From positions 1 to 64,000 of the forward strand of contig NZ_VSEY01000045.1 in NCBI RefSeq assembly GCF_008086045.1: DNA of 64,000 nt, in the 5' to 3' direction. The notes under the pieces are model-generated. The model worked only from the letters and a program-made list of their open reading frames with translations. It ran no database searches and was not told where the DNA came from. Below are positions 38,621 through 51,120 of this stretch, piece by piece. This DNA is from Nonomuraea sp. PA05. Lineage in GTDB: Bacteria; Actinomycetota; Actinomycetes; Streptosporangiales; Streptosporangiaceae. Position 1 is the stretch's first letter. Each line of letters starts with the position of its first letter. The position numbers and the translations under genes are program-made.

Positions 38621-40012
38621 ATGCCGCGTCCCTGGCGTGCCACCCTGGCCGCACTGATCGTCGCCCTGACCACGCAGGCCCCGGCCGGGCAGGCGAGCGC
38701 GGCGACGCAGTCGTTCCGCAACCCGGTGAACCCGTCCGCCGACCCCAGCCTCATCCACCACAACGGCGCCTACTACGTGGCCACCACGCGGGGCGACCGC
38801 ATCGGCGTCTGGCGCTCACCCAGCCTGGCCACCCTCCTGGCCGCCCCCGAGCAGGTCGTCTGGCGCGACAGCGACAACAGCCGCAACAAGCAGATGTGGG
38901 CGCCCGCCTTCCGCCACGTCGGCTCCCGCTGGTACCTGTACTACACGGCCTCCGACGGCGTGGACGCCAACCACCGCATGTACGTCCTGGAGTCGGCGGC
39001 CGACGACCCGATGGGCCCGTACACGTTCAAGGCGAAGATCGCCGACTTCGGCGAGTACGCCATCGACGGCGAGCCGATCACCCACAACGGCCAGTCCTAC
39101 TTCGTCTGGAGCGGCCCGGGGCGCGGCCTCGGCGGCCCCGCCCAGCTCTACATCGCCAGGATGAGCAACCCGTGGACGGTCACCGGCGGCCGGGTCGCGA
39201 TCCCCGCCGGCGGCGGCTGCACCGAGGTGCGGGAGGGCCCGACGCCGCTCTACCGGGGCGGCAGGACGTTCCTGACCTACTCCTCCTGCGACACCGGCAA
39301 GCCCGACTACCAGCTCTGGATGAAGAGCATCGCGAACGGCGCCAACCCCATGGTGGCCGCGAACTGGACGCAGCACCCGGGCCCGGTGTTCTCGCGCGAC
39401 GACGCGACCGGCGTGTGGGGCCCGGGGCACCACTCGTTCTTCCGCTCGCCCGACGGCGCCGAGGACTGGATCGCCTACCACGGCAAGAACACCAGCACCT
39501 ACACCTACGACTTCCGCACCACGCGGGTGCAGAGGTTCACCTGGAACGCCGACGGCACCCCGGACTTCGGCCGCCCCCTGGCCGCGGGCGCCACCCAGCG
39601 ACTCCCGTCAGGCGACCCCGGCGCGGCCACGTCGGTGATCAACGACTTCGACGCGCAGGTCACGTACGCGGGCGCCTGGCAGTCCGGCTCGGGCTGCGGC
39701 AACCAGTGCTTCTGGGGCAACGACCACTGGAGCGGCCAGGCCGGCGCGACCGCGACGGTCACCTTCAACGGCAGCCGGGTGGCCCTGCTCAGCGTGCGCG
39801 ACCGGGGCAACGGCATCGCCGCGATCTCCATCGACGGCGGGGCCGAGCAGCGGGTCGACTACTACAGCGGCATCCGGGTGGGGGAGCAGCTCAACTACCT
39901 GAGCCCGGTGCTGCCGCGCGGGCAGCACACGTTGCGGGTGCGGGTGACGGGCGAGCGCAACCCGGCGTCGGGCAGCACGGTGATCAGCATGGACCGGATC
40001 GAGGTGTTCTAG
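38621..40012 (+). CDS. Secreted glycoside hydrolase family 43 protein with C-terminal beta-sandwich
   Basis: 463 aa. Signal peptide ends ASA (about residue 27). Five-bladed propeller of GH43: FRNPVNPSADPSLIHHNGAYY (Asp base in ADPS), NKQMWAPAFRHVG, FGEYAIDGEPITHNGQSYFVW (Asp modulator) and CTEVREGPTPLYRGG (Glu acid). From about residue 345 a carbohydrate-binding-like beta-sandwich (VINDFDAQVTYAGAWQSG, FNGSRVALLSVRDRG). Probably releases arabinose or xylose from plant glycans. GGAAGGA precedes the ATG. Its stop overlaps that of the next gene on the other strand. Confidence 0.92.
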   Translation: MPRPWRATLAALIVALTTQAPAGQASAATQSFRNPVNPSADPSLIHHNGAYYVATTRGDRIGVWRSPSLATLLAAPEQVVWRDSDNSRNKQMWAPAFRHVGSRWYLYYTASDGVDANHRMYVLESAADDPMGPYTFKAKIADFGEYAIDGEPITHNGQSYFVWSGPGRGLGGPAQLYIARMSNPWTVTGGRVAIPAGGGCTEVREGPTPLYRGGRTFLTYSSCDTGKPDYQLWMKSIANGANPMVAANWTQHPGPVFSRDDATGVWGPGHHSFFRSPDGAEDWIAYHGKNTSTYTYDFRTTRVQRFTWNADGTPDFGRPLAAGATQRLPSGDPGAATSVINDFDAQVTYAGAWQSGSGCGNQCFWGNDHWSGQAGATATVTFNGSRVALLSVRDRGNGIAAISIDGGAEQRVDYYSGIRVGEQLNYLSPVLPRGQHTLRVRVTGERNPASGSTVISMDRIEVF

Positions 40013-41418
40013 CCGGCGGTGTAGAGCTTGGCGATGCGCGCTCCGAGGTCGGCGCCGTAGTTCTCGTGGTAGACCTGGGCGGAGCAGTAGACGGCGCCGC
40101 CCGTGCGGGCCAGGGCGGGCGTCCAGACGGCGGCGTTCTCGGCACCGGGGTCGCTCATCGTCATTCCGGTGAGCGCGATGTCGTCCACGCTGACGTCGAT
40201 GAAGTAGTCGCTCACGCCCTTGCGCTCGTACAGGCGCCACTGCAGCGTCGCGCTCGTCGCCCCGTTCAGCTTGGCCGTGAGGTCGACCGTCGCCCGCACC
40301 CAGGTGTCCGCCGCGTCGGCGGTGACGTCGCGCTCCCAGACCACCTTGCCGTTGAGCAGGAGCTGCTTGGCGTGGTATCCGGCCGGGTGCGACGGCCCGC
40401 GGGCGTCGCGGTGCCAGAAGCTCACCACCCGCCTGGCCGCCCCCGAGACCAGGACCGCCTTCCGCGTCGCGCCGCACGACATGCCCGCCTTGGTGGCGGT
40501 CTGCTGCTGGACGACGAAGCTCAGCCGCCCGTCGCCCGTGCGGGCCAGGTTGTCGGCCGCGGGGCGCGTCCACGCCTGGTCGCGGGAGACGAACGGCAGC
40601 TTGTACTGCAGGACCCCGGCCAGCTCACCGCCGCGGACGTGCTCGACCGCCTTCTTGGTGACCGCCTCGACGTAGGACACCGTCGGCTTCTGGGCGGCGT
40701 GGCTCAGCGGGTACGCGTACGGCATCAGGTAGATCTCGGTGCCGGGCAGCCGCTTGCTCAGCTCCCGCACCTGGTACGACAGGCTCCACGGCCAGGAGGT
40801 GTCCCGGTACGGCTCGTCGCGGAAGGGGAAGACCACGCCGTCCACCAGCGGGATCTGCTCGGCCACGAACGCGTCGGTGAACTGGGCGTAGTAGACGGTC
40901 GGGACGAACCTGAGCGCGGGGGCGATCGCCTTGGCCGCCGACCGCATCTGCCCGACGTAGGCGGGGGTGAACGTCTTGAGGTCGTAGGCGTAGTCGTCCA
41001 CCGTCCAGCCGGCCAGGTTCGGGTGGGCCTTGGCGAGGGTGGCGATCTCGCGGGACCAGGCGACGTAGTCGTGCTTGTACGGCCGGGACACGCAGCAGCC
41101 TTGCTGGCTGGGCGAGTACACCAGCACCCAGACGTCGATCCCGGCGGCGGCCGCGGCGGGCAGGAACTCGTCCCGCAGGTCGGTCCAGTGCACGTTGTCG
41201 CCGGCCATCGGATAGACGTAGGTGTTCGCGTTGAGCGCCTTCAGCCCCGCGATGATCGCCTTGGTGTCCACGTGCCTGATCCCGTCGGCGCGCGGCTGCT
41301 CCTCACGCATGAGGTTGCCCGCCGTCCCCAGCGCGCCGCCCGGAACCTCGGCGTGGGACACGCCGGGGAGCATCGGCAGCAGCACGGCCAAGACGATCAC
41401 GAGTGCGAGACGGATCAC
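40009..41418 (-). CDS. Secreted TIM-barrel-like glycosidase-related protein
   Basis: 469 aa. Signal peptide ends SHA (about residue 23). Residues 40-290 look like a TIM barrel of the DUF4434 type: LKALNANTYVYPMAGDN, AGIDVWVLVYSP, NLAGWTVDDYAYDLKTF (probable acid pair), RFVPTVYYAQF, PLVDGVVFPFRDE. A C-terminal beta-sandwich (SFWHRDARGP...LQWRLYERKGVSDYFIDVSVDDI) resembles carbohydrate-binding modules. Exact family not assigned. Convergent with GH43; both may act on the same extracellular glycan, but they are not co-transcribed. Confidence 0.75.
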   Translation of the reverse strand: MIRLALVIVLAVLLPMLPGVSHAEVPGGALGTAGNLMREEQPRADGIRHVDTKAIIAGLKALNANTYVYPMAGDNVHWTDLRDEFLPAAAAAGIDVWVLVYSPSQQGCCVSRPYKHDYVAWSREIATLAKAHPNLAGWTVDDYAYDLKTFTPAYVGQMRSAAKAIAPALRFVPTVYYAQFTDAFVAEQIPLVDGVVFPFRDEPYRDTSWPWSLSYQVRELSKRLPGTEIYLMPYAYPLSHAAQKPTVSYVEAVTKKAVEHVRGGELAGVLQYKLPFVSRDQAWTRPAADNLARTGDGRLSFVVQQQTATKAGMSCGATRKAVLVSGAARRVVSFWHRDARGPSHPAGYHAKQLLLNGKVVWERDVTADAADTWVRATVDLTAKLNGATSATLQWRLYERKGVSDYFIDVSVDDIALTGMTMSDPGAENAAVWTPALARTGGAVYCSAQVYHENYGADLGARIAKLYTAG

Positions 41419-41492: not shown

Positions 41493-44400
41493 TCAGAACG
41501 GCGAGTCGAGCGGCACCTGCCGCACCCCCGGCAGGTACGGATCCAGCTCCCCGAGCTCGAACCGCGACATCCCCACCACGTGCCAGAACTGCCCGCCGGG
41601 ATCCCCCTGCACCTTGTACCGCCCGTCGGGCGCCAGCGCCGCCCACCCCTCGGGCAGCCCGAGCAGGGTGGCCCGGCGCTCGCCGCCCGCCCAGAGGATC
41701 ACCGTGCCGTCGTCGCCGGCGCTGGCCAGCAGGTCCTCGGCGGGGCTGAAGGCGACCGACCAGACCCTGCGGGCGTGCCCGGCCAGGGTGTGCAGCAGCC
41801 GCCCGCCGGCGGTGTCCCAGACGCGGACGAGCGTGTCGTCGCCGCCGGTGGCCAGGCGCTCGCCCGAGGCGTCGAAGGCGAGGCTCCACAGCCGTCCCTC
41901 GTGCAGGTCGAGCGTGTGCACCAGTCGGCCGGGGCGCCGCTCCCACACCAGGGCCAGGCCGTCGTTGCCGGCGCTGGCCAGGTAGCGGCCGTCGGGGGAG
42001 AAGGCGACGGAGTAGACGCGGTCGTGGTGCCCCTCCAGCCTGGCGACGCGCAGGCCGGTGCTCGCGTCCCACACGCGCACGCCGTGGTCGTCGCAGCCGG
42101 TGGCCACGTACGCGCCGTCGGGGCTGAAGGCGATGGAGCGCACCCGGCCGCGGTGGCCGATCAGCTCGCCCGCCAGCCGGCCCGTCGGGCGGTACCAGAT
42201 GCGTACGCTGTCGTCGTCGTTGGCGGTGGCCAGCAGGGTGCCGTCGGGGCTGAACGCCTCGGCCCACACGTGGTCGGTCTCGGCGTTCAGCTCGCGCTCG
42301 TAGTCGCCGGTGGCGGCGTTCCAGAAGTGCACGCCGCCGTCGTTGCTGGAGGTGGCCAGCAGCGGCCCGGCGGGGGAGAAGGAGGCGGAGACGAGCCGGT
42401 CGGCGGTGCCGGTGAACTCGCGCAGCCGCCGTCCGGTGCGCGGCTCCCACACGCGTACGAGGCCGTCGTTGCCGCTGGTCGCCAGCATGGTGCCGTCGGC
42501 GCTGAAGCGGACGGAGGAGATGCGCCGGCCGTGGCCGCGCAGCACCCGCTGGCACTGGCCGGTGTCGGGGTCCCACAGCCGCACGGTGCCGTCGTTGCTG
42601 CTGGTGGCGAGCTGCTGCCCGTCGGGGCTGAAGGCGAACGGCCACACCGAGCTGCGGTGCCCCGTCAGCTCGACCCGCTGGCCGGAGCCGAGGCGCTGCA
42701 GCCGGACCACGCCGTTGGCGTCGCCGGTGGCCAGGACCTGCCCGTCGGGGCCGAACGCCACCTGGTAGACGGCGGCGGCGTGCGTGGTGTGCACGCCGCG
42801 CGCCTCGCCCGAGGTCTCCCACACGCGGACGCTGCCCGCCGTGTCGCCGGTGGCCAGCAGCGAGCCGTCGGGCGAGAACGTCACGCAGTAGACGCTGCCC
42901 AGGTGCCCCGTCAGCTCGTGGGCGAGCCGCCAGGTGCGGGTGTCCCACAGCCGGACGGTGCCCGCCTCGTCGCCGGTGGCCAGCAGCCGCCCGTCGGGGC
43001 TGTGCACGGCGCGGTAGACGCTGCCGCGGTGCTCGCCGAGCGTCTCCTTCACCTGGCCCGAACCGAGGTCCCAGACCCGCACCACGCCCGCGGAGTCGCC
43101 GGTCACCAGGGCCGAGGCGCCGAAGGAGGCGGTGTAGACGGGCTCCCGGTGCCCGGCCAGCTCGTGCACGAGCCGCCCGGTGGCCGTCTCCCACACGCGG
43201 ACCACGCCGTCGGCGCCGCCCGCCGCCACCAGCTCGCCGGAGGGGTCGAGCCGCACCGGCCAGACGCCGCCGGGGTGGCACTCCAGCCTGCGCAGCAGCT
43301 CGCCGCTCAGGGCGTCCCACAGCAGCACGAAGCCGTCGCTCGCGCCCGTGGCCAGCAGGCCGCCGGCGAACGTGACCGCGTACACGCGGCCCCGGTGGCC
43401 CTGCAGCGTGCGCACCGGCGCGCCGCCGACGCACAGCAGCACGCCGCCGTCCTCGTTGCCGACCGCGATCGTGGCCCCGTCGGGGCTGTAGGCGATCGGC
43501 TCCGGCAGGCGGCTGGTCTGGAAGTGGTAGCCGTACGGGACGCCGATGCCCGCCGGCGCGAACTCCACCTCGACCGGCTGGCCCGGCACCACGGCGGCGC
43601 CGGGCAGGTGCGGCAGCGTGCCGGTCACGTCGATGAGCGAGGCGCGGTGCCAGCGGGCGCCCTCCAGCGCGGCGTCGCTCAGGTCCACCTGCGCCAGCCG
43701 CGCCCCGGACAGGTCGGCGCCGCGCAGGTCGGCGCCGGTGAGCTGGGCGCCGTCGAGCCGCGCGCCGATCAGCCTGGCATCGCGCAGGACGGCCCTGGAC
43801 AGGTTCGTGCCGGCCAGCGTGGCCTCCGACAGGTCGGCGCCGGTGAGATCGACCTCGCGCAGGTCCCTGGCCGACAGGTCCTCGCCCTTGAGGTTGGCGC
43901 CGCGCAGGTCGGCGTGGGCGGGCGTGCGCAGCCTGGCGGAGATCTTGACCGCGTTCGCCCTGGGCACGTCGTCGGGCGGCGGGTCGTTCACCCAGGCCCG
44001 CAGCGCCCGCACGTCGGCCAGGTCGCACAGGAACTCCACGGTCAGTGCCGACAGCGGCCTGCGCGACAGCAGGACAGGGTGGTCCAGCGTCATCGCGATG
44101 CGCCGGGCGACCAGCCACTCCATCACCGAGGCGTGGATGAACCCGAACATGCCCTCATCGGTGCGCACCAGCAGGCTGCCCGAGCCCATCCGGAACGCGG
44201 CGTGCGCGGCCGTGAGCTGCCCGTCGGCCAGGTCGGTCAGCGTCTCGCCGACCTCGGTCAGCTCGTCGAGCGCCAGCAGCGCCTCGCCGGACTCCCACAG
44301 CCGCACCGCCAGCGCCGTCACCGCCCGCCACAGATCGTCGACGGTCAGCCCGGAGGGGGAGCCGGGGATCCTGGCCCGCCGCTCCTCGAAGACCAGCCAG

Positions 44401-47048
44401 GAGGTGAGGATCTCCTCGTACAGCAGGGCGGGGCTGACCGCGCGCCTGGCCCCGGCCACCGTACGCAGGCGGTCGGCGTCGAGGTCGGTGATGAAGCTGA
44501 GCATGCGCGGGTTCTGGGCCAGCGCCAGCAGGTCCTCGATCTCCCCCATCAGCGACATGCGGGCGCCGGCCTCCTCGCCGGCGCCGAACCGGTTGGCCAG
44601 GTAGGCGCGGATCTGGTCGGGCGTGAAGTCCTCGACGCTGAGCACCCGCCGCTGCGGCAGCACCCCGACCATCTCGCCGAGCGAGGTGAGCACCTGGCTG
44701 GTCGACTTGAAGTGCTGGGTGCGGCTGGCCACCACGATCTTCGCCTTGTCCTCGGCCGCCGCCAGCAGTGTGGCCAGGTGGTCGGCCGCCCGGTCGTAGG
44801 TCAGCCGGGTGACCAGCTCGTCGAACCCGTCGAACAGCAGCACGATCCGCCCCTGCCGCAGCAGGTAGCGGAACGCCTTGAGGTCGATGACCTCCTCGCC
44901 GTGGCCGGCCAGGTGCGCGGCCACCAGCGCGTCCACCGAGTGCGCCTTGTCCAGGGCGCGCAGCTCGATGAGGATCGGCGTCAGGTGCGGCAGCTCGGCG
45001 GGGATGCGGCGGGCCAGCTCGCGCAGCGCGAACGTCTTGCCGTGGCCGAAGTCGCCCAGCAACAGCAGGAACCGGCCGTGGTCGGCGGCCAGCAGCCGCA
45101 TCAGCTCGTCGGTCAGGCCCTGCCGGGTCTGGCCGCCGGGACGGTCGAGCTCGCGGTAGCGCTGCGGGACGTACAGGCCGGGCGGGTAGCGCCGGTCGGA
45201 GGTCAGCCTGGCGGTCTGCTCGGCCACGTAGCCGCTCAGGTCGAGCAGGCCCTGGAACTCGGTGAAGCTGCGCAGCCGCACGCCCATGCGCATCAGGTCG
45301 TCGCGCAGCGCGCGCGGCGCGGGCGGGCCCTGGTAGACCAGCTCGGCGGCCAGGCCGCCGGCGTGCGCCTGCCGGACGAACCCGGCCGCGGCCTCCTCGT
45401 CCAGCGCGCCCACGTGCGCGCCGATCATCGTCTGCCGGACGAAGCCGTCCTCGGCCTGGGTGACCACCAGGTGCGTGCCGAACCTGCGGATCTTGGTGTG
45501 CTCGTGCCTGGCCTCGCACACCTCGGTGATCCGGTCGAGCAGCAGCTCCACCGGGCTCGGCTCGCGCTCCTCAGGCTTGGCGGCGGGCGGCTGGGCGGGC
45601 GGGCTCTCGCCGGTGAACGTGGCCCGCGCGGCCCGCCAGCGGGCGCGTACCGGCTCGGGACGCTCTCCGTCGGGCACCCACGTGCGCAGCCCGTCGGGGC
45701 CGATCTCCACCACGTGGTGCCGCCCGGAGCGCGGCGCGGCGATGCGCCCCTCCGCCGCCTGGCCGGAGCCGCCGTGGAAGAGCAGGTTGACGCGGTGGCC
45801 CAGCAGCCGCTCGTAGGCGGGCGCGTCCCTCAGCTCCTCCGGGGGATGCCCCATCGCGCCCAGGCGCAGCCACTCGCGCTCCTCGTAGGGCCGCAGCCGC
45901 TCGGCGAACCAGGCCGCCTGCGCCTCGCCGAGCATCGCGAACGCGTCGCGCTCCAGGTGGCTCATCGCCATCGTCGAGTTCAGCCCGGCCACCACCACCT
46001 TCAGGTCGGGCACCTCGAACAGCGTCCACGGCTGCCCGCCGTCGAACACCCGGTCGTCCAGCCCCTGGTACAGCTCACCGAACAGGGTGGCGAAGTGCCG
46101 CCACTTGGGCCAGTAGGGCGGCTGCGGGCTGACGTCGTCGGCCTCGCAGGTCAGGAAGTAAGCGCTGGCGGCGGCCTTGGTGACGTCGCGCGGGCCGGGC
46201 AGCAGCACCAGCCGGTGCGGCTCCAGGCCGAGCAGCAGCCGCAGGTCGGTGACGAACCGCGTCGCCTGCGCGTACTGCCCCAGGCTGCCGGACTCGGTCA
46301 GGTCGCCGCTGACGACCATCAGGTCGGGGCGGGGCATGCCGCGGTCGTACAGGGCGGTCAGGTCGGCCCAGATGCGGGCCTGCATGTCCTCGGGCGTGAA
46401 CGGGTCGCCGGGGTCGGGCAGCGCCCGGCCGAAGCGGGGGCCGCCGATGTGCAGCACGCTGATCGAGTCGCGGGCCCTGCCCGGCCCGGCCACCGGCGGG
46501 AACGTGGGCGGCGTGACGGGCGCGCGCCGGGCGCTGGCGCGTTCGGCGGGCGGCGGCAGGGTCGGCGCGGGCGGCGGAACCAGGGTGCCGTCGGGGAAGG
46601 CGGGCGCGGCCTCCGGCTTGGCCCGGCCCGCCAGCGCCTCCCTGACCCGGCCCAGCAGCAGCGCCCTGGCCTGGCCAGGGTCGGTGACGCCCAGCAGGTC
46701 GACCCAGGTGATGGTGGACAGCAGCCCCTCCAGGGGCACGTCCTCCAGCCTGATCGTGACGAGCTTGTTGGACGGGTTGCCGGGGTCGGCGCGCAGCGCC
46801 GCCTGCCACTCCATCCGGCCGTAGCGGGAGCCCAGGTAGTTGCGCGAGAGCACCGCCACGACGAGCTGGGCCTCGCTGACGCCGCGGTCCATGAAGTCGA
46901 TGAAGTTCGTGCCGGGCACGAAGTCCCACGCCTGGATCATGGTGCGGTATCCCGCCGCCTCCAGCTCCCAGGCGATCCAGGTCGCCCAGGCTGTGTCGGC
47001 CGGGGAGTAGCTGACGAAGATGTCGGTCGGCCTGCCGTCACGTGCCAT
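41493..47048 (-). CDS. Giant STAND protein: TIR, degenerate metallophosphoesterase, unknown domain, NACHT, pentapeptide, WD40
   Basis: 1851 aa. Residues 8-135: TIR_2 domain (DIFVSYSPADTAWATWIAWELE, VAVLSRNYLGS, candidate NADase Glu80 in RMEW). 140-190: Pro-rich linker. 195-460: calcineurin-like phosphoesterase fold with most metal ligands replaced. 500-630: domain of unknown function ending YVPQRYRELD. 655-985: NACHT NTPase (Walker A GDFGHGKT at 665-672, Walker B IVLLFDGFDE at 735-744, winged-helix end FIHASVMEWL). 1040-1135: pentapeptide repeats (ADLRG, ANLKG). 1185-1790: about 15 WD40 repeats, enough for two propellers. This is an NLR-like sensor-effector plan: WD40 senses, NACHT oligomerises, TIR acts on NAD. 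Role in defence is inference. Probably leaderless (GATACT 6 nt before ATG). Confidence 0.93.
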   Translation of the reverse strand: MARDGRPTDIFVSYSPADTAWATWIAWELEAAGYRTMIQAWDFVPGTNFIDFMDRGVSEAQLVVAVLSRNYLGSRYGRMEWQAALRADPGNPSNKLVTIRLEDVPLEGLLSTITWVDLLGVTDPGQARALLLGRVREALAGRAKPEAAPAFPDGTLVPPPAPTLPPPAERASARRAPVTPPTFPPVAGPGRARDSISVLHIGGPRFGRALPDPGDPFTPEDMQARIWADLTALYDRGMPRPDLMVVSGDLTESGSLGQYAQATRFVTDLRLLLGLEPHRLVLLPGPRDVTKAAASAYFLTCEADDVSPQPPYWPKWRHFATLFGELYQGLDDRVFDGGQPWTLFEVPDLKVVVAGLNSTMAMSHLERDAFAMLGEAQAAWFAERLRPYEEREWLRLGAMGHPPEELRDAPAYERLLGHRVNLLFHGGSGQAAEGRIAAPRSGRHHVVEIGPDGLRTWVPDGERPEPVRARWRAARATFTGESPPAQPPAAKPEEREPSPVELLLDRITEVCEARHEHTKIRRFGTHLVVTQAEDGFVRQTMIGAHVGALDEEAAAGFVRQAHAGGLAAELVYQGPPAPRALRDDLMRMGVRLRSFTEFQGLLDLSGYVAEQTARLTSDRRYPPGLYVPQRYRELDRPGGQTRQGLTDELMRLLAADHGRFLLLLGDFGHGKTFALRELARRIPAELPHLTPILIELRALDKAHSVDALVAAHLAGHGEEVIDLKAFRYLLRQGRIVLLFDGFDELVTRLTYDRAADHLATLLAAAEDKAKIVVASRTQHFKSTSQVLTSLGEMVGVLPQRRVLSVEDFTPDQIRAYLANRFGAGEEAGARMSLMGEIEDLLALAQNPRMLSFITDLDADRLRTVAGARRAVSPALLYEEILTSWLVFEERRARIPGSPSGLTVDDLWRAVTALAVRLWESGEALLALDELTEVGETLTDLADGQLTAAHAAFRMGSGSLLVRTDEGMFGFIHASVMEWLVARRIAMTLDHPVLLSRRPLSALTVEFLCDLADVRALRAWVNDPPPDDVPRANAVKISARLRTPAHADLRGANLKGEDLSARDLREVDLTGADLSEATLAGTNLSRAVLRDARLIGARLDGAQLTGADLRGADLSGARLAQVDLSDAALEGARWHRASLIDVTGTLPHLPGAAVVPGQPVEVEFAPAGIGVPYGYHFQTSRLPEPIAYSPDGATIAVGNEDGGVLLCVGGAPVRTLQGHRGRVYAVTFAGGLLATGASDGFVLLWDALSGELLRRLECHPGGVWPVRLDPSGELVAAGGADGVVRVWETATGRLVHELAGHREPVYTASFGASALVTGDSAGVVRVWDLGSGQVKETLGEHRGSVYRAVHSPDGRLLATGDEAGTVRLWDTRTWRLAHELTGHLGSVYCVTFSPDGSLLATGDTAGSVRVWETSGEARGVHTTHAAAVYQVAFGPDGQVLATGDANGVVRLQRLGSGQRVELTGHRSSVWPFAFSPDGQQLATSSNDGTVRLWDPDTGQCQRVLRGHGRRISSVRFSADGTMLATSGNDGLVRVWEPRTGRRLREFTGTADRLVSASFSPAGPLLATSSNDGGVHFWNAATGDYERELNAETDHVWAEAFSPDGTLLATANDDDSVRIWYRPTGRLAGELIGHRGRVRSIAFSPDGAYVATGCDDHGVRVWDASTGLRVARLEGHHDRVYSVAFSPDGRYLASAGNDGLALVWERRPGRLVHTLDLHEGRLWSLAFDASGERLATGGDDTLVRVWDTAGGRLLHTLAGHARRVWSVAFSPAEDLLASAGDDGTVILWAGGERRATLLGLPEGWAALAPDGRYKVQGDPGGQFWHVVGMSRFELGELDPYLPGVRQVPLDSPF

Positions 47049-47094
47049 TCGCCCAGTATCCCTTGCCCCGCCGGCGGTGTGCGATCATCTTCGG

Positions 47095-48267
47095 GTGTGG
47101 CGGCGTCTTGGCGTACTCGACTGGATCAGGGTCGGGCTGCTGGTCCTGGGGCTGGTCTTCGTGGCGACCGGCCTGCTGCCGTGGGACGACGCGGTCACCA
47201 GCCTGCTTGAGATCGGCCCGCTGCTGATCTTCCTGGTGGCGGTCATCGTGCTGGCCGAGCTGACCAAGGAGGCTCAGGTCTTCGACGCCATCGCGGCGCG
47301 GATGGCGGTGCTCGGCCGCGGCAACTACGCGGCCCTCTTCTTTCTTTGTGTCATTTTTGCGTCATTTGTTACGATATTTCTGAATTTGGATACGACGGCG
47401 GTGCTGCTCACCCCCGTCATGCTCGCCCTGGCCCCCCGCGCCCGCATCGCCGCTCTTCCCCTCGCCATGACCACCATCTGGCTGGCCAACACCGCGAGCC
47501 TGCTGCTGCCGGTCTCCAACCTGACGAACCTGCTCGGCATGCGGAAGATCGGCCTGAGCGCTCAGGAGTTCGCCGCCCGCATGTGGGCGCCCCAGCTCGC
47601 CGCCATCGCGGTGACGATGGTGTTCCTGTGGGCGTTCTACTGGCGGCGCGGCGAGCGGCGCGACCTGCGTTACACCCCGCCGGTGCTCGAACCGATCGCC
47701 GACCGGGCGCTGTTCTCCGCCGCGTCGGCCGCGTGCGTGCTGTTCATCGCGCTGCTGCTGGTGGAGACGCACGTGGCGATCGCCGCCACGGCCGCGGCCG
47801 TCATCGTGGTGGCCGCGTTCGCGCTGCGCTCCCGCGAGCGCCTGACGTGGAGCCTGATCCCCTGGCAGCTCGTCATCTTCGTGACCGGCCTGTTCCTGGT
47901 CGTGCCCACGCTCAGCCTGCACGGCCTGTCCGCCGTGATGACCTGGATGATCGGCACCGAGGGCGACCCCTACCGCACCGCCGCCGTCGGCGCCGGGCTG
48001 TCCAACGTGATCAACAACCTGCCCGCCTACAAGGCCGTCGAGACCGTCATCCCGGCCACCGACCAGGACCTCCTGCTGGCCCTGCTGGTGGGCACCAACG
48101 TCGGGCCGGTCATCACCCCGTGGGCGTCGCTGGCCACGCTGCTGTGGTTCGAGTCGTGCCGCCGCCACGACGTCCGGGTGCCGATGCGCCGCTTCCTGCT
48201 CACCGGGGCCGGGCTGGCCGTCGTGGGGGTGCCGGTGACCGTCTGGGCGCTGGTCACCTTCGGGTGA
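47095..48267 (+). CDS. ArsB/SLC13-type anion permease
   Basis: 390 aa, about ten membrane helices. Two inverted halves with helix-hairpin signatures: NLDTTAVLLTPVMLAL and LANTASLLLPVSNLTNLLG in the first, INNLPAYKAVETV and GTNVGPVITPWASLATLLWF in the second. Related proteins export arsenite or move Na+ or dicarboxylates; the ion is not predictable. The GTG at 47095 is chosen because TM1 begins shortly after; only 46 bp separate it from the divergent STAND gene. Codons 83-99 (47341-47391) are strikingly AT-rich. Confidence 0.85.
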   Translation: MWRRLGVLDWIRVGLLVLGLVFVATGLLPWDDAVTSLLEIGPLLIFLVAVIVLAELTKEAQVFDAIAARMAVLGRGNYAALFFLCVIFASFVTIFLNLDTTAVLLTPVMLALAPRARIAALPLAMTTIWLANTASLLLPVSNLTNLLGMRKIGLSAQEFAARMWAPQLAAIAVTMVFLWAFYWRRGERRDLRYTPPVLEPIADRALFSAASAACVLFIALLLVETHVAIAATAAAVIVVAAFALRSRERLTWSLIPWQLVIFVTGLFLVVPTLSLHGLSAVMTWMIGTEGDPYRTAAVGAGLSNVINNLPAYKAVETVIPATDQDLLLALLVGTNVGPVITPWASLATLLWFESCRRHDVRVPMRRFLLTGAGLAVVGVPVTVWALVTFG

Positions 48268-48645: not shown

Positions 48646-49458
48646 TCACTCCAGCAGCGAGAGCAGCCCGGGCAGGGCCAGCGGATGGGCGGCCACGAAG
48701 CTGCGCTCGTCGCCGGGGCCGTCCACGCACTCCTCGTAGGGCCCGCCGTCCAGCCGCCGGATCTCGATGCCCGCCTCCTGCGCCAGCAGCGCCCCCGCCG
48801 GCAGGTCCACCACCCCGGCCCGGTAGCCCACGATGCCGTCGATGTCGCCGCGCGCCAGCATCGCCCAGGCCAGCAGCGGCGCCCAGAGCTGCAGCACCCG
48901 GCGGGCGTTGAGGTCGAGCGCCGTCTTCAGCCGCCGCACGGTCGCGTCGTCCCTGGCGATGCCGTACCCCTGGGTCCAGGCCAGCAGCGGCCCGTGCGGG
49001 CTCGGCGCGTACGGCGGCGCCAGGCGCAGCCCCGAGGAGGTGCCTGAGGAGGCGAACGACCCCCTGCCGCGCACCGCCGACCACGTCTGACGGGAGACGG
49101 GGTCGTGCACCACGCCCAGCAGCGGCCGCCCGCCCCGGCACAGCGCCACGCCCACCACGTACGTCGGCAGCCCGATGGCCACGTTGTTGGTGCCGTCGAG
49201 CGGGTCGACCAGCCACGTCCACTCACCGCCCGCCGCCCCGACCAGCCCCGACTCCTCGGCGATCACCGTGTGCGACGGGTACGCCGTCAGGATCCGCTCC
49301 AGCAGCAGCTTCTCCGAGGCCAGGTCCAGGTCCGTCACCACGTCGCCGGCCTCGCCCTTGGCCCTGGTGCCGAGCGCGCCCCTGGTGCCCTCCAGGAGCA
49401 GCGCGCCCGCGGCCTCGGCGGCTTCGACGGCGACCGTACGAGCGTGATCCAGGTCCAT
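48646..49458 (-). CDS. Inositol-monophosphatase-like phosphatase
   Basis: 270 aa. Mg-dependent phosphatase fold: metal ligands in AGDVVTDLDLASEK, VIAEES, and WLVDPLDGTNNVAIG (DPLDGTxN), and the C-terminal GIVGYRAGVVDLPAGALLAQEAG, where the usual Trp-Asp is Val-Asp. Substrate could be inositol phosphate, histidinol phosphate, PAP or a nucleotide; the sequence does not decide. Last gene of a three-gene run; it starts 10 nt after the cupin-like gene. Confidence 0.88.
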   Translation of the reverse strand: MDLDHARTVAVEAAEAAGALLLEGTRGALGTRAKGEAGDVVTDLDLASEKLLLERILTAYPSHTVIAEESGLVGAAGGEWTWLVDPLDGTNNVAIGLPTYVVGVALCRGGRPLLGVVHDPVSRQTWSAVRGRGSFASSGTSSGLRLAPPYAPSPHGPLLAWTQGYGIARDDATVRRLKTALDLNARRVLQLWAPLLAWAMLARGDIDGIVGYRAGVVDLPAGALLAQEAGIEIRRLDGGPYEECVDGPGDERSFVAAHPLALPGLLSLLE

Positions 49459-49468
49459 CGGGTGCCTC

Positions 49469-50086
49469 TCAGGTCAGGTGCGCGGTGATCATGCGGATGG
49501 CCAGGGCCGTCTCCGTGGCGTCCAGCGGCTGCCTGGACACGTGGTGCGGGCCGCCGGCCAGCGGGCCGAGCGACAGGTCGTGGCTGCCGGGCCGGCCGCG
49601 GCCGAGCGCGATCGTGGCCGCCTCGCCGCCCTCGGGCACCACGCTGCTGTGGAAGCGGCCGGCGGTGAGCGTGTAGGTGTCGCCGGGGCCGAAGATCTCC
49701 ACCAGGCCGGTGGCGTGCCGCACGGTGCGGGCGGTGGGCGAGATGCGGTCGCCGTCGGCGGCGCTGACCACCTCGTACACCCGGTGCGTGGCCTCGGCGA
49801 GCGCGTCGGAGACCACCGCGTGCACGTTGCGCACCTGGCCGTAGAGCACGTGGCTGACCAGGTCCCAGCTGTGGCAGTGGATCTGCGAGGTGGTGCTCTC
49901 GGCGTGCGCGAGCGAGTCGGTCCACAGGTGGAGGCATACCCCTTCGCCGCCTTGGCGCTCCAGCGGCAGGCAGACGAACCCGAGCGGATGGCGTACGGCC
50001 GTCAGACCCGGCCGCGACAGCTCCGCAAGCGCCCACGCCCGCGCCTCACCGGCTCGCAGGACCGCGCGCACGCTGCTCAGGCTCAT
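49469..50086 (-). CDS. Cupin-like protein of unknown function
   Basis: 205 aa. Beta-rich, with a probable metal site in STTSQIHCHSWDLVSHVLYGQVRN and a matching GPGDTYTLTAGRFHSSVVPEG, as in cupins (HxH ... H). No family name is certain. Its ATG overlaps the stop of the upstream membrane-protein gene (ATGA), and the phosphatase follows after 10 nt, so the three proteins are likely made together. Confidence 0.72.
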   Translation of the reverse strand: MSLSSVRAVLRAGEARAWALAELSRPGLTAVRHPLGFVCLPLERQGGEGVCLHLWTDSLAHAESTTSQIHCHSWDLVSHVLYGQVRNVHAVVSDALAEATHRVYEVVSAADGDRISPTARTVRHATGLVEIFGPGDTYTLTAGRFHSSVVPEGGEAATIALGRGRPGSHDLSLGPLAGGPHHVSRQPLDATETALAIRMITAHLT

Positions 50087-51120
50087 GCGTACGGATCCAG
50101 CGCGCGCAGGGCCTTACGGGCGATGTCGACGACGTCGCGGCCGTTGTAGGACCTGGGCAGGGGCGTCCCGATCCGCTCGAACAGCTCCTGCACCTCCTCG
50201 ATGGTGGGCTCGTCGCCGAGCGGCACCTTCTTGTACATCTCCAGCGGCACCCGCCGCGCCTGCTCCATGCTGAGCCGCAGCTCGGTGTCGCAGTTCTCGT
50301 AGTAGAACGTGTCGGCCAGCGCGGTCATCGCCATGTTCGGGTCCTCGACCGTCATGATCAGGCGGGTCGAGGACAGGTCCCAGCGGAACGTGGTCATCGT
50401 CGAGGACAGGCCCACCTCGATGTCGAGCAGGCCGTAGCGCTGGCGGTGCCAGAAGGCCGCCAGGATGGTCGCGTACGACTCCTTCCTGGCCCGGTCGGTC
50501 GTCCACGTCTCGCCGGTGCCGTCGGGGGCGTCGGACAGCGAGCGGCGGTAGTGGGCGTAGGTCTCGCACACCTCCGCGTTGGCCGGGTCGATGATCTCGA
50601 CGCTGACCCTGAGGTGCCGCTTGTCCTTGCGCGCGGCGGCCACGCACTCGGGCAGCGTGACGGCGCGCAGGTAGGTGCCGGTGCCGCCCTTGAAGCTCCA
50701 CCGGGTGGTGTCCCTGCGGGCCTCGGCGTGCGACTGGGCGATCTCCTGCCTGCTGCCGAGCACCCTGACGAGCTGCAGGGAGTCGAGGGCCCTGCGGGTG
50801 CTGTGGGCCAGCGTCTCGATCTCCTCCAGGCGGGCCAGCCGCACGGGCAGCTCGGCCAGCGCCCCTGAGGTGATCGTCTTCTCGACGGGCGCCTGGCGGG
50901 CGCGGTCGCGCAGCAGCGCCGTGGCCACCAGCGCGAGGATGACCAGGGTCGCGGCGGTGACGAGCTGGCGCTGGATCTCGTCGCCCTGCGTGCCGAAGAT
51001 CTCGTCGGGCATGATGCCGAGCACGCCCACGATGATCGCCAGGCCGAGCGCGATGGCGCCGTCCGCGTTGCGCGCCGCCCATGGGGCGGACCTCTTCAAC
51101 GCCGCCATGAACCGTGCCAT
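50083..51120 (-). CDS. Two-helix membrane protein with large cytoplasmic domain, unknown function
   Basis: 345 aa. Two N-terminal membrane helices (about residues 21-39 and 52-70) joined by an acidic loop, a short coiled-coil-like stretch (LARLEEIETLAHSTRRALDSL), and a C-terminal domain of about 220 residues: RRDTTRWSFKGGTGTYLRAVTLPECVA, LRVSVEIIDPANAEVCETYAHYRRSL, STRLIMTVEDPNMAMTALADTFYYENCDTELRL. I do not recognise this domain; IIDPAN and the GGTG loop suggest a ligand-binding alpha/beta fold. First gene of the operon with the cupin and phosphatase genes. Confidence 0.75.
   Translation of the reverse strand: MARFMAALKRSAPWAARNADGAIALGLAIIVGVLGIMPDEIFGTQGDEIQRQLVTAATLVILALVATALLRDRARQAPVEKTITSGALAELPVRLARLEEIETLAHSTRRALDSLQLVRVLGSRQEIAQSHAEARRDTTRWSFKGGTGTYLRAVTLPECVAAARKDKRHLRVSVEIIDPANAEVCETYAHYRRSLSDAPDGTGETWTTDRARKESYATILAAFWHRQRYGLLDIEVGLSSTMTTFRWDLSSTRLIMTVEDPNMAMTALADTFYYENCDTELRLSMEQARRVPLEMYKKVPLGDEPTIEEVQELFERIGTPLPRSYNGRDVVDIARKALRALDPYA

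What the first reader, a model, noticed from the sequence alone, without database searches (positions are those of the whole stretch)
41493..47048. Six-module NLR-like protein: TIR + phosphoesterase fold + unknown domain + NACHT + pentapeptide + WD40
One intact 1851-residue gene combines a TIR domain, a calcineurin-like fold, an uncharacterised domain, a NACHT ATPase with good Walker A and B motifs, pentapeptide repeats and about 15 WD40 repeats. Established: bacterial STAND/NACHT and TIR proteins often act in phage defence, with TIR cleaving NAD. Inference: this is a single-gene abortive-infection or self/non-self sensor. The phosphoesterase-like insert and the double sensor (pentapeptide plus WD40) make the plan unusual. 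It stands alone in its operon.
Basis: partly seen in the sequence, partly recalled or inferred. Interest (0 to 1): 0.85.

Follow-up and report, generated by a model that had tools for sequence, protein, structure and literature searches.

The report
Core bacterial immune-receptor-like gene module
A very large immune-receptor-like bacterial protein proves to be an old, stably inherited gene kept at a conserved chromosomal place with two small partner genes, rather than a swappable phage-defence gene, so it may watch for something inside the cell itself.

Summary
The protein is real, on the minus strand (47048..41493; 1851 aa): TIR, phosphoesterase fold, NA-iREase3 (the "uncharacterised" domain), NACHT, pentapeptide repeats, about 14 WD40 repeats. 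TIR Glu80 and NACHT Lys671 are invariant in every aligned row that covers them. The phosphoesterase is a fossil: Rv0805-like fold, but motif-I metal ligands are Gly and Arg in all 61 sequences; two of three TIR-less relatives keep a near-intact site.

The "single-gene, variable-locus phage defence" reading is not supported. The gene is in 51 of 54 same-genus (Nonomuraea) genomes and 22 of 68 sampled genera of the family, head-to-head with a CitMHS transporter and near coaE, and diverges in step with coaE (rho 0.89). No phage or viral copy was found. WD40 repeats show no concerted evolution.

It is tied to two uncharacterised genes: a 2-TM protein with a PLD-like fold (u345) and a cupin-like protein (u205). 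In the order sample 71 of 72 strict NLR carriers have u345; the exception lies near a contig end. In N. thailandensis a divergent homologous pair replaces them.

Best reading: a vertically inherited NLR module with TIR output, monitoring a conserved, possibly self, cue. Function is untested.

The parts
41493..47048 (-). NLR-like gene, 1851 aa: TIR - pseudo-phosphoesterase - NA-iREase3 - NACHT - pentapeptide - WD40
   Evidence: 60 closed orthologous ORFs
46680..47024 (-). TIR domain (aa 9-123); Glu80 in all 60 sequences that cover it; most conserved domain (mean identity to the window 94.5% in genus, 83% in other genera)
45684..46469 (-). Phosphoesterase-fold domain (aa 194-455), metal site degenerate (motif I D->G203 and H->R205 in 61 of 61)
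45240..45548 (-). NA-iREase3 (NACHT-associated inactive restriction endonuclease; aa 501-603)
44586..45071 (-). NACHT NTPase (about aa 660-821); Lys671 and DGFDEL invariant in 61 of 61
43635..43913 (-). Pentapeptide repeats (about aa 1046-1138)
41679..43433 (-). WD40 repeats (aa 1206-1790, 14 Pfam stretches)
47054..47060 (-). Conserved GATACTG motif just upstream of the ATG: promoter-like, would fit a leaderless transcript
   Evidence: ATACTG within 25 nt upstream of the start in 39 of 40 same-genus orthologues
47020..48267 (+). CitMHS/ArsB-family transporter, divergent from the NLR (start codon uncertain); found in 58 of 60 loci
48646..49458 (-). Inositol-monophosphatase-family protein (InosP); found in 53 of 60 loci, absent in three (L050, L100, L103) where u345 and u205 are in view
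49469..50086 (-). u205, cupin-like protein (His70-x-His72 ... His146)
50083..51120 (-). u345, hydrophobic N-terminus (two TM helices by inspection, not by a predictor) plus a PLD-like fold; its end overlaps the start of u205 by 4 nt

Best explanation
This is the receptor and executioner of a vertically inherited NLR-type module of Streptosporangiaceae and some other actinomycetes: NLR + u345 (membrane, PLD-like fold) + u205 (cupin-like), usually with an inositol-phosphatase-family gene and a divergent CitMHS transporter. Shown: anatomy, invariant TIR Glu and NACHT motifs, loss of the phosphoesterase metal site, conserved locus, co-occurrence with u345/u205, no concerted evolution of the tested WD40 repeats. 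Inferred: the WD40/pentapeptide platform and the dead phosphoesterase read a conserved cue or partner; ATP binding by NACHT drives assembly; clustered TIR domains cleave NAD+ and kill or arrest the hyphal compartment (or make a TIR signal). u345/u205 set the trigger or hold the receptor off: the pair can exist without the NLR, while close NLR orthologues are almost never found without u345, the pattern of a guarded component or an antidote. The cue is more likely a conserved cellular state (stress, development, or a perturbation that phages cause) than a strain-variable phage part.
For: Present in 51 of 54 same-genus genomes, with one match in 49 of the 51; 59 of 200 family genomes, 22 of 68 genera. 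Same neighbours across genera. Of six NLR-less genomes, five show the interval without the NLR, two of them with coaE directly next to spo0M; the sixth (G169) is unresolved. Pairwise identities track coaE (rho 0.89) and CitMHS (0.90); neighbour control coaE against CitMHS 0.84. u345 in 71 of 72 strict NLR genomes (E<1e-60, a cut-off I set after seeing the list) of the order sample, the exception near a contig end. Class sample of 296: u205 in 11 of 11 strict NLR genomes and in 3 of the other 285 at E<1e-20; u345 in 10 of the 11. L050: old u345 a fragment, a 41%-identical u345-u205 pair beside the NLR. L101: NLR, u205 and u345 each split between frames while InosP, coaE and GNAT are in one frame. 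L230: NLR in fragments, u345 lacking its N-terminal part, u205 a remnant with most of the middle missing, InosP not found. L126 and L128: u345, u205, InosP, NLR in a row on one strand. TIR the most conserved domain. Orthologous WD40 repeat is the best match in 587 of 600.
Against: No expression, NADase or phenotype data. 46 of 68 sampled genera of the family gave no match, and 3 of 54 same-genus genomes lack it, so it is dispensable. The block is linked, so part of the co-occurrence may be shared deletion. More distant relatives go without the pair: of 19 class genomes with weaker NLR-type matches only G507 has u205, and G083, G189 and G278 of the order sample have weak matches and no u345. 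G235 keeps u345-u205-InosP-CitMHS with the NLR absent; seven more order-sample genomes have u345 without an NLR match. G408 has NLR and u205 but no u345 found. The locus is rearranged in some genomes (coaE on the other side in L065, cassette inverted in L078). WD40 is the most variable folded module (mean entropy 0.65, TIR 0.19); iREase dN/dS was 0.19 to 0.93 in four pairs. L101's frame breaks could be assembly errors.
Confidence: 0.55

Rival explanations
1. One reading: an accessory abortive-infection gene. The WD40/pentapeptide part recognises a phage product, NACHT oligomerises, TIR depletes NAD+.
For: Domain types known from defence; weak matches to antiphage models (EruA 29.9 bits against cut-off 1000; DS9_1 phosphoesterase 27.5 against 420; PADLOC bSEFIR 34 bits). 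Patchy at genus level (22 of 68). Multi-copy distant relatives in another family (up to eight matches in a genome) look like an accessory repertoire.
Against: Near-universal in its genus, conserved locus, diverges like housekeeping neighbours, no mobile-element copies found, no concerted WD40 evolution, partner genes. A core gene can still be immune, so phage defence as function is not excluded; only the accessory, single-gene form is.
Confidence: 0.25
2. A developmental or stress regulator domesticated from an NLR: it reads an endogenous signal and triggers programmed lysis or arrest during hyphal differentiation, not immunity.
For: Core status and conserved sequence; a spo0M-family gene close by in the window and in 38 of 60 loci; no mobile-element copy found. 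Precedent from an abstract read: LypABC, a CARD-NLR-like system needed for gene-transfer-agent lysis in Caulobacter (PMC13236601).
Against: No developmental gene is bound to the block; most sampled genera of the same family lack it; spo0M is present with or without the NLR.
Confidence: 0.3
3. The link with u345/u205 is only physical linkage: unrelated genes kept side by side by vertical descent and deleted together.
For: The genes are within a few kb in most genomes seen; rates correlate because all descend vertically.
Against: In two Microbispora-type genomes and one f39 genome the pair lies about 7 to 15 kb from the NLR and is kept; L050 replaced the pair by a divergent one next to the NLR; L101 breaks these three genes and not InosP, coaE or GNAT. 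coaE stays in all six NLR-less genomes inspected, though as a housekeeping gene it would be expected to.
Confidence: 0.2
4. The TIR domain is a protein-interaction adaptor rather than an enzyme, as in animal TLR/MyD88.
For: The best-scoring solved relatives by sequence are TLR and MyD88 TIRs.
Against: Glu at the NADase position is invariant in 60 of 60; no partner TIR gene was seen in the block.
Confidence: 0.1

Closest known systems
Bacterial NACHT/NLR-related proteins (bNACHT families; start of the abstract of PMC12169576 seen in a search listing)
   Same: Central NACHT ATPase; N-terminal effector and C-terminal sensor (that layout recalled)
   Different: Those are known as antiphage genes; this one is near-universal in its genus at a conserved locus with partner genes
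Conflict systems of multicellular bacteria with TIR, calcineurin-like and STAND domains (Kaur et al. 2020, PMC7159879; 2021, PMC8195603; passages read)
   Same: Same vocabulary of domains; passages in both papers name TIR and calcineurin-superfamily domains as effectors in such systems
   Different: A passage on the TRADD-N proteins stresses N-terminal domains varying between close relatives; here the TIR is the most conserved part and the calcineurin-fold domain is dead
Fungal HET-type NACHT-WD40 NLRs (start of the abstract of PMC12222747 seen in a listing; repeat biology recalled)
   Same: NACHT followed by a WD40 array
   Different: No sign of concerted evolution: orthologous repeats 81% against 38% for paralogous ones in the genus, on 10 repeats
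Rv0805 / GpdQ phosphodiesterases
   Same: Fold of the phosphoesterase part of aa 188-640
   Different: Motif I D and H are G and R, motif III N-H is P-R, GHxH is lost; motif II Asp and one motif IV His remain
LypABC CARD-NLR-like system (PMC13236601, abstract read)
   Same: NLR-like system with a role outside phage defence
   Different: Different domains (peptidases, CARD) and different partners

Membership tests
STAND/NACHT NLR-related proteins | NACHT P-loop NTPase with Walker A and B | tested here: met
   PF05729 43.8 to 47.1 bits against cut-off 26.7; K671 and DGFDEL in 61 of 61
STAND/NACHT NLR-related proteins | N-terminal effector and C-terminal superstructure-forming repeats | tested here: met
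   TIR_2 at the N-terminus; pentapeptide and WD40 at the C-terminus
TIR NADases | TIR fold with conserved catalytic Glu | tested here: met
   TIR_2 profile match; E80 in 60 of 60 sequences covering it; that this position is the catalytic one is recalled knowledge
TIR NADases | NAD+ cleavage activity | not testable with these tools
   needs an assay
Active metallophosphoesterases | Calcineurin-like fold | tested here: met
   Foldseek to Rv0805, E 1.6e-10
Active metallophosphoesterases | Metal ligands D-x-H, GD, GNH(D), H, GHxH | tested here: not met
   G203 and R205 in 61 of 61, R287 in 58 of 61, motif V lost; D249 (56 of 61) and H401 (61 of 61) remain; therefore not filed as an enzyme
NA-iREase3 (PF22739) | Pfam profile match above cut-off | tested here: met
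   115.6 bits against cut-off 27; catalytic inactivity is Pfam's label, not tested
Known antiphage systems (PADLOC-DB 2.0.0, NCBIfam) | Full-length match to a named system | tested here: not met
   only partial or repeat-driven matches; u345, u205, InosP and CitMHS no PADLOC match
Accessory defence genes | Variable locus or mobile-element carriage | tested here: not met
   conserved neighbours, intervals without the gene in five of six NLR-less genomes inspected, no phage or viral copy found, single 'plasmid' record is 11.85 Mb
Diversifying WD40 NLRs (HET type) | Concerted or hypervariable WD40 repeats | tested here: not met
   on the 10 of about 14 repeats that the search pattern caught; one genome per species, so no strain-level test
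Cupin superfamily (u205) | Cupin profile match above cut-off | tested here: inconclusive
   PF07883 weakly in 10 of 31 members, best E 0.0025; H-x-H and later H conserved
PLD superfamily (u345) | PLD fold and HKD motif | tested here: inconclusive
   Foldseek best E 1.1e-3, to phosphatidylserine synthase, then SauUSI 1.2e-3; no invariant His that could head an HKD motif in the alignment

The most novel reading that the evidence does not exclude
A housekeeping NLR: a bacterial NLR kept as a core gene for a conserved endogenous cue, with a TIR executioner that took over from an ancestral phosphoesterase effector (now a fossil, perhaps a ligand pocket with arginines in place of metals), and with an obligatory membrane/cupin pair that acts as guarded component or antidote.
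Probability: 0.35. Interest if true: 0.85.

Novelty: new variant of a known kind. Interest (0 to 1): 0.62.

Why it matters
Bacterial NLRs are studied almost only as accessory antiphage genes (my recollection of the field). An NLR that is core to a genus, conserved in place and bound to two uncharacterised genes makes it testable whether such receptors also serve the organism's own physiology, as NLRs do in plants and animals. The dead phosphoesterase, with near-intact TIR-less relatives, is a readable case of one effector apparently replacing another. The u345-u205 pair gives a concrete hypothesis for how a potentially lethal TIR protein is kept safe over long evolutionary time.

Tried and rejected
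Active phosphoesterase as second effector: rejected, both motif-I ligands absent in all 61 aligned sequences. Recent arrival by mobile element: rejected by locus, rate correlation and collection searches. Concerted WD40 evolution: rejected on the 10 repeats caught by the search pattern. Naming u345 or u205 by Pfam, NCBIfam, PADLOC or PDB sequence profile gave nothing firm. A sigma-factor class for the GATACTG motif was considered and not assigned. Literature: the listings (two empty, the others capped at 6 to 20 titles) showed no paper on this architecture, locus or gene pair; PMC10853773 (passages read) uses 'iREase' for another system. The library lacks most subscription papers. Families f19, f20 and f39 could not be named: the genome search gives no names, and the genome-contig scan returned the best 80 of 276 loci, none of which I could assign to them.

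Weak points of my own. (1) Alignment A1 holds two rows, L111 and L117, translated from the wrong strand (confirmed). They are 2 of the 44 rows behind the AlphaFold2 model, the profile and the pattern scans. (2) dN/dS is Nei-Gojobori on GC-rich codons and rough. (3) WD40 entropy used 10 of about 14 repeats; conserved positions may be structural rather than a binding face. (4) The family, order and class samples overlap. (5) The promoter background (37 of 29,406 25-nt tiles) includes NLR starts themselves. (6) The strict E<1e-60 sets were chosen after seeing the lists; unfiltered counts are given too. (7) 'Same genus' is the tool's grouping: at least one member (G037) has the contig length of the record titled Thermoactinospora rubra.

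Full report
WHAT IS THERE. The gene is on the minus strand, 47048 down to 41493, 1851 aa, in a 13.1 Mb genome. The closest named relatives are '[Actinomadura] parvosata' (91%) and many Nonomuraea, so I take the genus to be Nonomuraea, family Streptosporangiaceae. Pfam gives TIR_2, NA-iREase3, NACHT, pentapeptide and WD40; the phosphoesterase is sub-threshold, but the AlphaFold2 model matches Rv0805 and GpdQ. The 'unknown domain' is NA-iREase3.

ACTIVE SITES. On 61 aligned sequences (window, 40 same-genus, 20 same-family): Glu80 in 60 of 60 that cover it, Walker Lys671 in 61 of 61, DGFDEL in 61 of 61. The phosphoesterase motif I has G203 and R205 in 61 of 61 where an enzyme has D and H; motif III has R287 in 58 of 61; motif V has no GHxH. 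Motif II keeps D249 in 56 of 61 and motif IV keeps H401 in 61 of 61. In one search nine further sequences with the TIR architecture (L125 to L133; L133 is a second copy in the same family, the others are from f19, f20 and f39; TIR confirmed by Pfam in the six of them that were scanned) also lack the motif-I D and H. Of three TIR-less relatives in the family, two (L135, L136) keep S-D-x-Q, GD, GNHD, HH and GHTH, that is all but a Gln in place of the motif-I His, and score above Pfam's cut-off; the third (L134) is degenerate. This suggests, without proving, that TIR took over as effector and the phosphoesterase became a non-catalytic part.

CORE GENE AT A CONSERVED LOCUS. The query was aa 194-637. 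It matches 51 of 54 same-genus genomes, 49 of them once (the G011 match is cut by a contig end); 59 of 200 family genomes in 22 of 68 genera; 77 of 200 in the order sample; 30 of 296 in the class sample, many of these distant and multi-copy. The samples overlap. Sixty loci of about 13 to 18 kb were cut out. Within the fetched stretch coaE is found in 59, CitMHS in 58, GNAT in 57, u345 and u205 in 56 each, InosP in 53, spo0M in 38 (34 of 40 same-genus, 4 of 20 other). Of the four lacking u345/u205, L086 and L088 are cut by contig ends; L092 and L093 were cut too short, the pair lying further out in both genomes. Rearrangements exist: coaE is on the other side in L065, the cassette is inverted in L078. 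Six genomes without the NLR were inspected: coaE lies directly next to spo0M in G110 and G067; GH43 and an unassigned stretch lie between in G014 and G025; a CitMHS lies between in G040; in G169 only coaE and GNAT were recognised, so its site is unresolved. Pairwise identity of the NLR tracks coaE (rho 0.89), CitMHS 0.90, InosP 0.88, u205 0.88, u345 0.85, GNAT 0.78; the control coaE against CitMHS is 0.84. Whole-gene dN/dS is 0.22 to 0.33 in four pairs, TIR 0.05 to 0.075, iREase 0.19 to 0.93, neighbours 0.07 to 0.37. No phage record and no viral contig was found to encode it; the one 'plasmid' record is 11.85 Mb.

SENSOR. For the 10 WD40 repeats caught by a pattern, the orthologous repeat is the best match in 587 of 600 cases; identity is 81% to the orthologous and 38% to paralogous repeats in the genus, 66% and 38% in other genera. 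Positions -12 to -10 and 3 to 6 of the repeat have mean entropy 0.10 to 0.32; means above 1 occur at -2, 8, 15, 18, 22 and 24. Some of the conserved positions are structural, so this does not by itself show a conserved binding face. Against my reading, WD40 as a whole is the most variable folded module (mean entropy 0.65; TIR 0.19; NACHT 0.26). TIR identities follow NACHT identities (rho 0.79, L101 left out), so the TIR does not look swapped.

PARTNERS. Upstream on the same strand lie u345 (50083-51120), u205 (49469-50086, overlapping u345 by 4 nt) and InosP (48646-49458). In two genomes of another family (L126, L128) u345, u205, InosP and NLR lie in a row on one strand. In the order sample u345 is in 73 of 77 NLR-positive and 8 of 123 NLR-negative genomes (Fisher p 6e-40, not corrected for kinship); of 72 strict NLR genomes (five weak or fragmentary matches set aside, two of these with u345) 71 have it, the exception G269 having its NLR match near a contig start. 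In the class sample u345 is in 13 of 296 and u205 at E<1e-20 in 14 of 296; the 11 strict NLR genomes all have u205 and 10 have u345; of the 19 with weaker NLR-type matches only G507 has u205. Of 80 named loci, 69 have both genes within the flank; of the other 11, five are Microbispora loci of full length and six are short loci. In L050 the old u345 is a fragment, InosP and CitMHS are missing, and a 41% u345-u205 pair lies beside the NLR. Decay: L101 has NLR, u205 and u345 split between frames but GNAT, coaE and InosP in one frame; L230 has NLR fragments, a u345 without its N-terminal part and a u205 remnant lacking most of the middle; L233 has fragments of CitMHS, InosP and u345 and no NLR. 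Against: L228 (G235) keeps the cassette with no NLR, and G146/G096 keep u345-u205 alone; G408 has NLR and u205 without a detected u345. The soluble part of u345 is modelled with confidence, its N-terminus is not, and it weakly resembles PLD folds; u205 looks like a cupin.

START SITE. ATACTG lies within 25 nt upstream of the ATG in 39 of 40 same-genus orthologues, including L050, where the partner pair was replaced. It supports the ATG start and a conserved, possibly leaderless promoter; the sigma factor is not assigned.

MECHANISM AND VERDICT. Most likely an NLR module with TIR output, set by u345/u205 and responding to a conserved cue. The TIR chemistry, the assembly and the cue are inferred from family knowledge. 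It is a member of the NACHT/NLR-related proteins; it is not filed as an active phosphoesterase, an accessory defence gene or a diversifying HET-type receptor. Phage defence as the ultimate function remains open.

Noticed in passing
window 40009-41418 (-): 469-aa protein with a signal-like N-terminus just downstream of the NLR, no Pfam match; no hit above 60 bits in any of the 60 orthologous loci, so the NLR-coaE gap seems to hold strain-specific cargo
   Followed up: partly
G000, 23 places: The genome holds 23 NACHT matches at E<=0.001; this is one of many STAND proteins, and the only place matching the phosphoesterase/iREase query
   Followed up: partly
L135 and L136 (G189, G083): TIR-less relatives with a near-intact phosphoesterase site ahead of NA-iREase3 and NACHT
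   Followed up: partly
L137 (G021, second copy): A relative of the NACHT part that carries Pfam NNH7; no TIR or phosphoesterase match in its first 1000 residues
   Followed up: no
L235 12723-13700 (G001): A second u345-like gene directly downstream of the NLR, 48% identical over aa 127-344
   Followed up: partly
L126, L128 and L145, just downstream of the NLR: A different CitMHS-family gene (about 31% identical) lies beyond the 3' end of the NLR in three f19 genomes; no divergent CitMHS was seen in their fetched stretches
   Followed up: partly
NZ_LT559118.1: An 11.85 Mb record labelled 'plasmid I' of Nonomuraea gerenzanensis is in the plasmid collection; by size it looks like the chromosome
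   Followed up: no
class family f19, several genomes: Up to eight matches per genome to the phosphoesterase/iREase part, mostly 35-50% identical: looks like a lineage-specific expansion
   Followed up: partly
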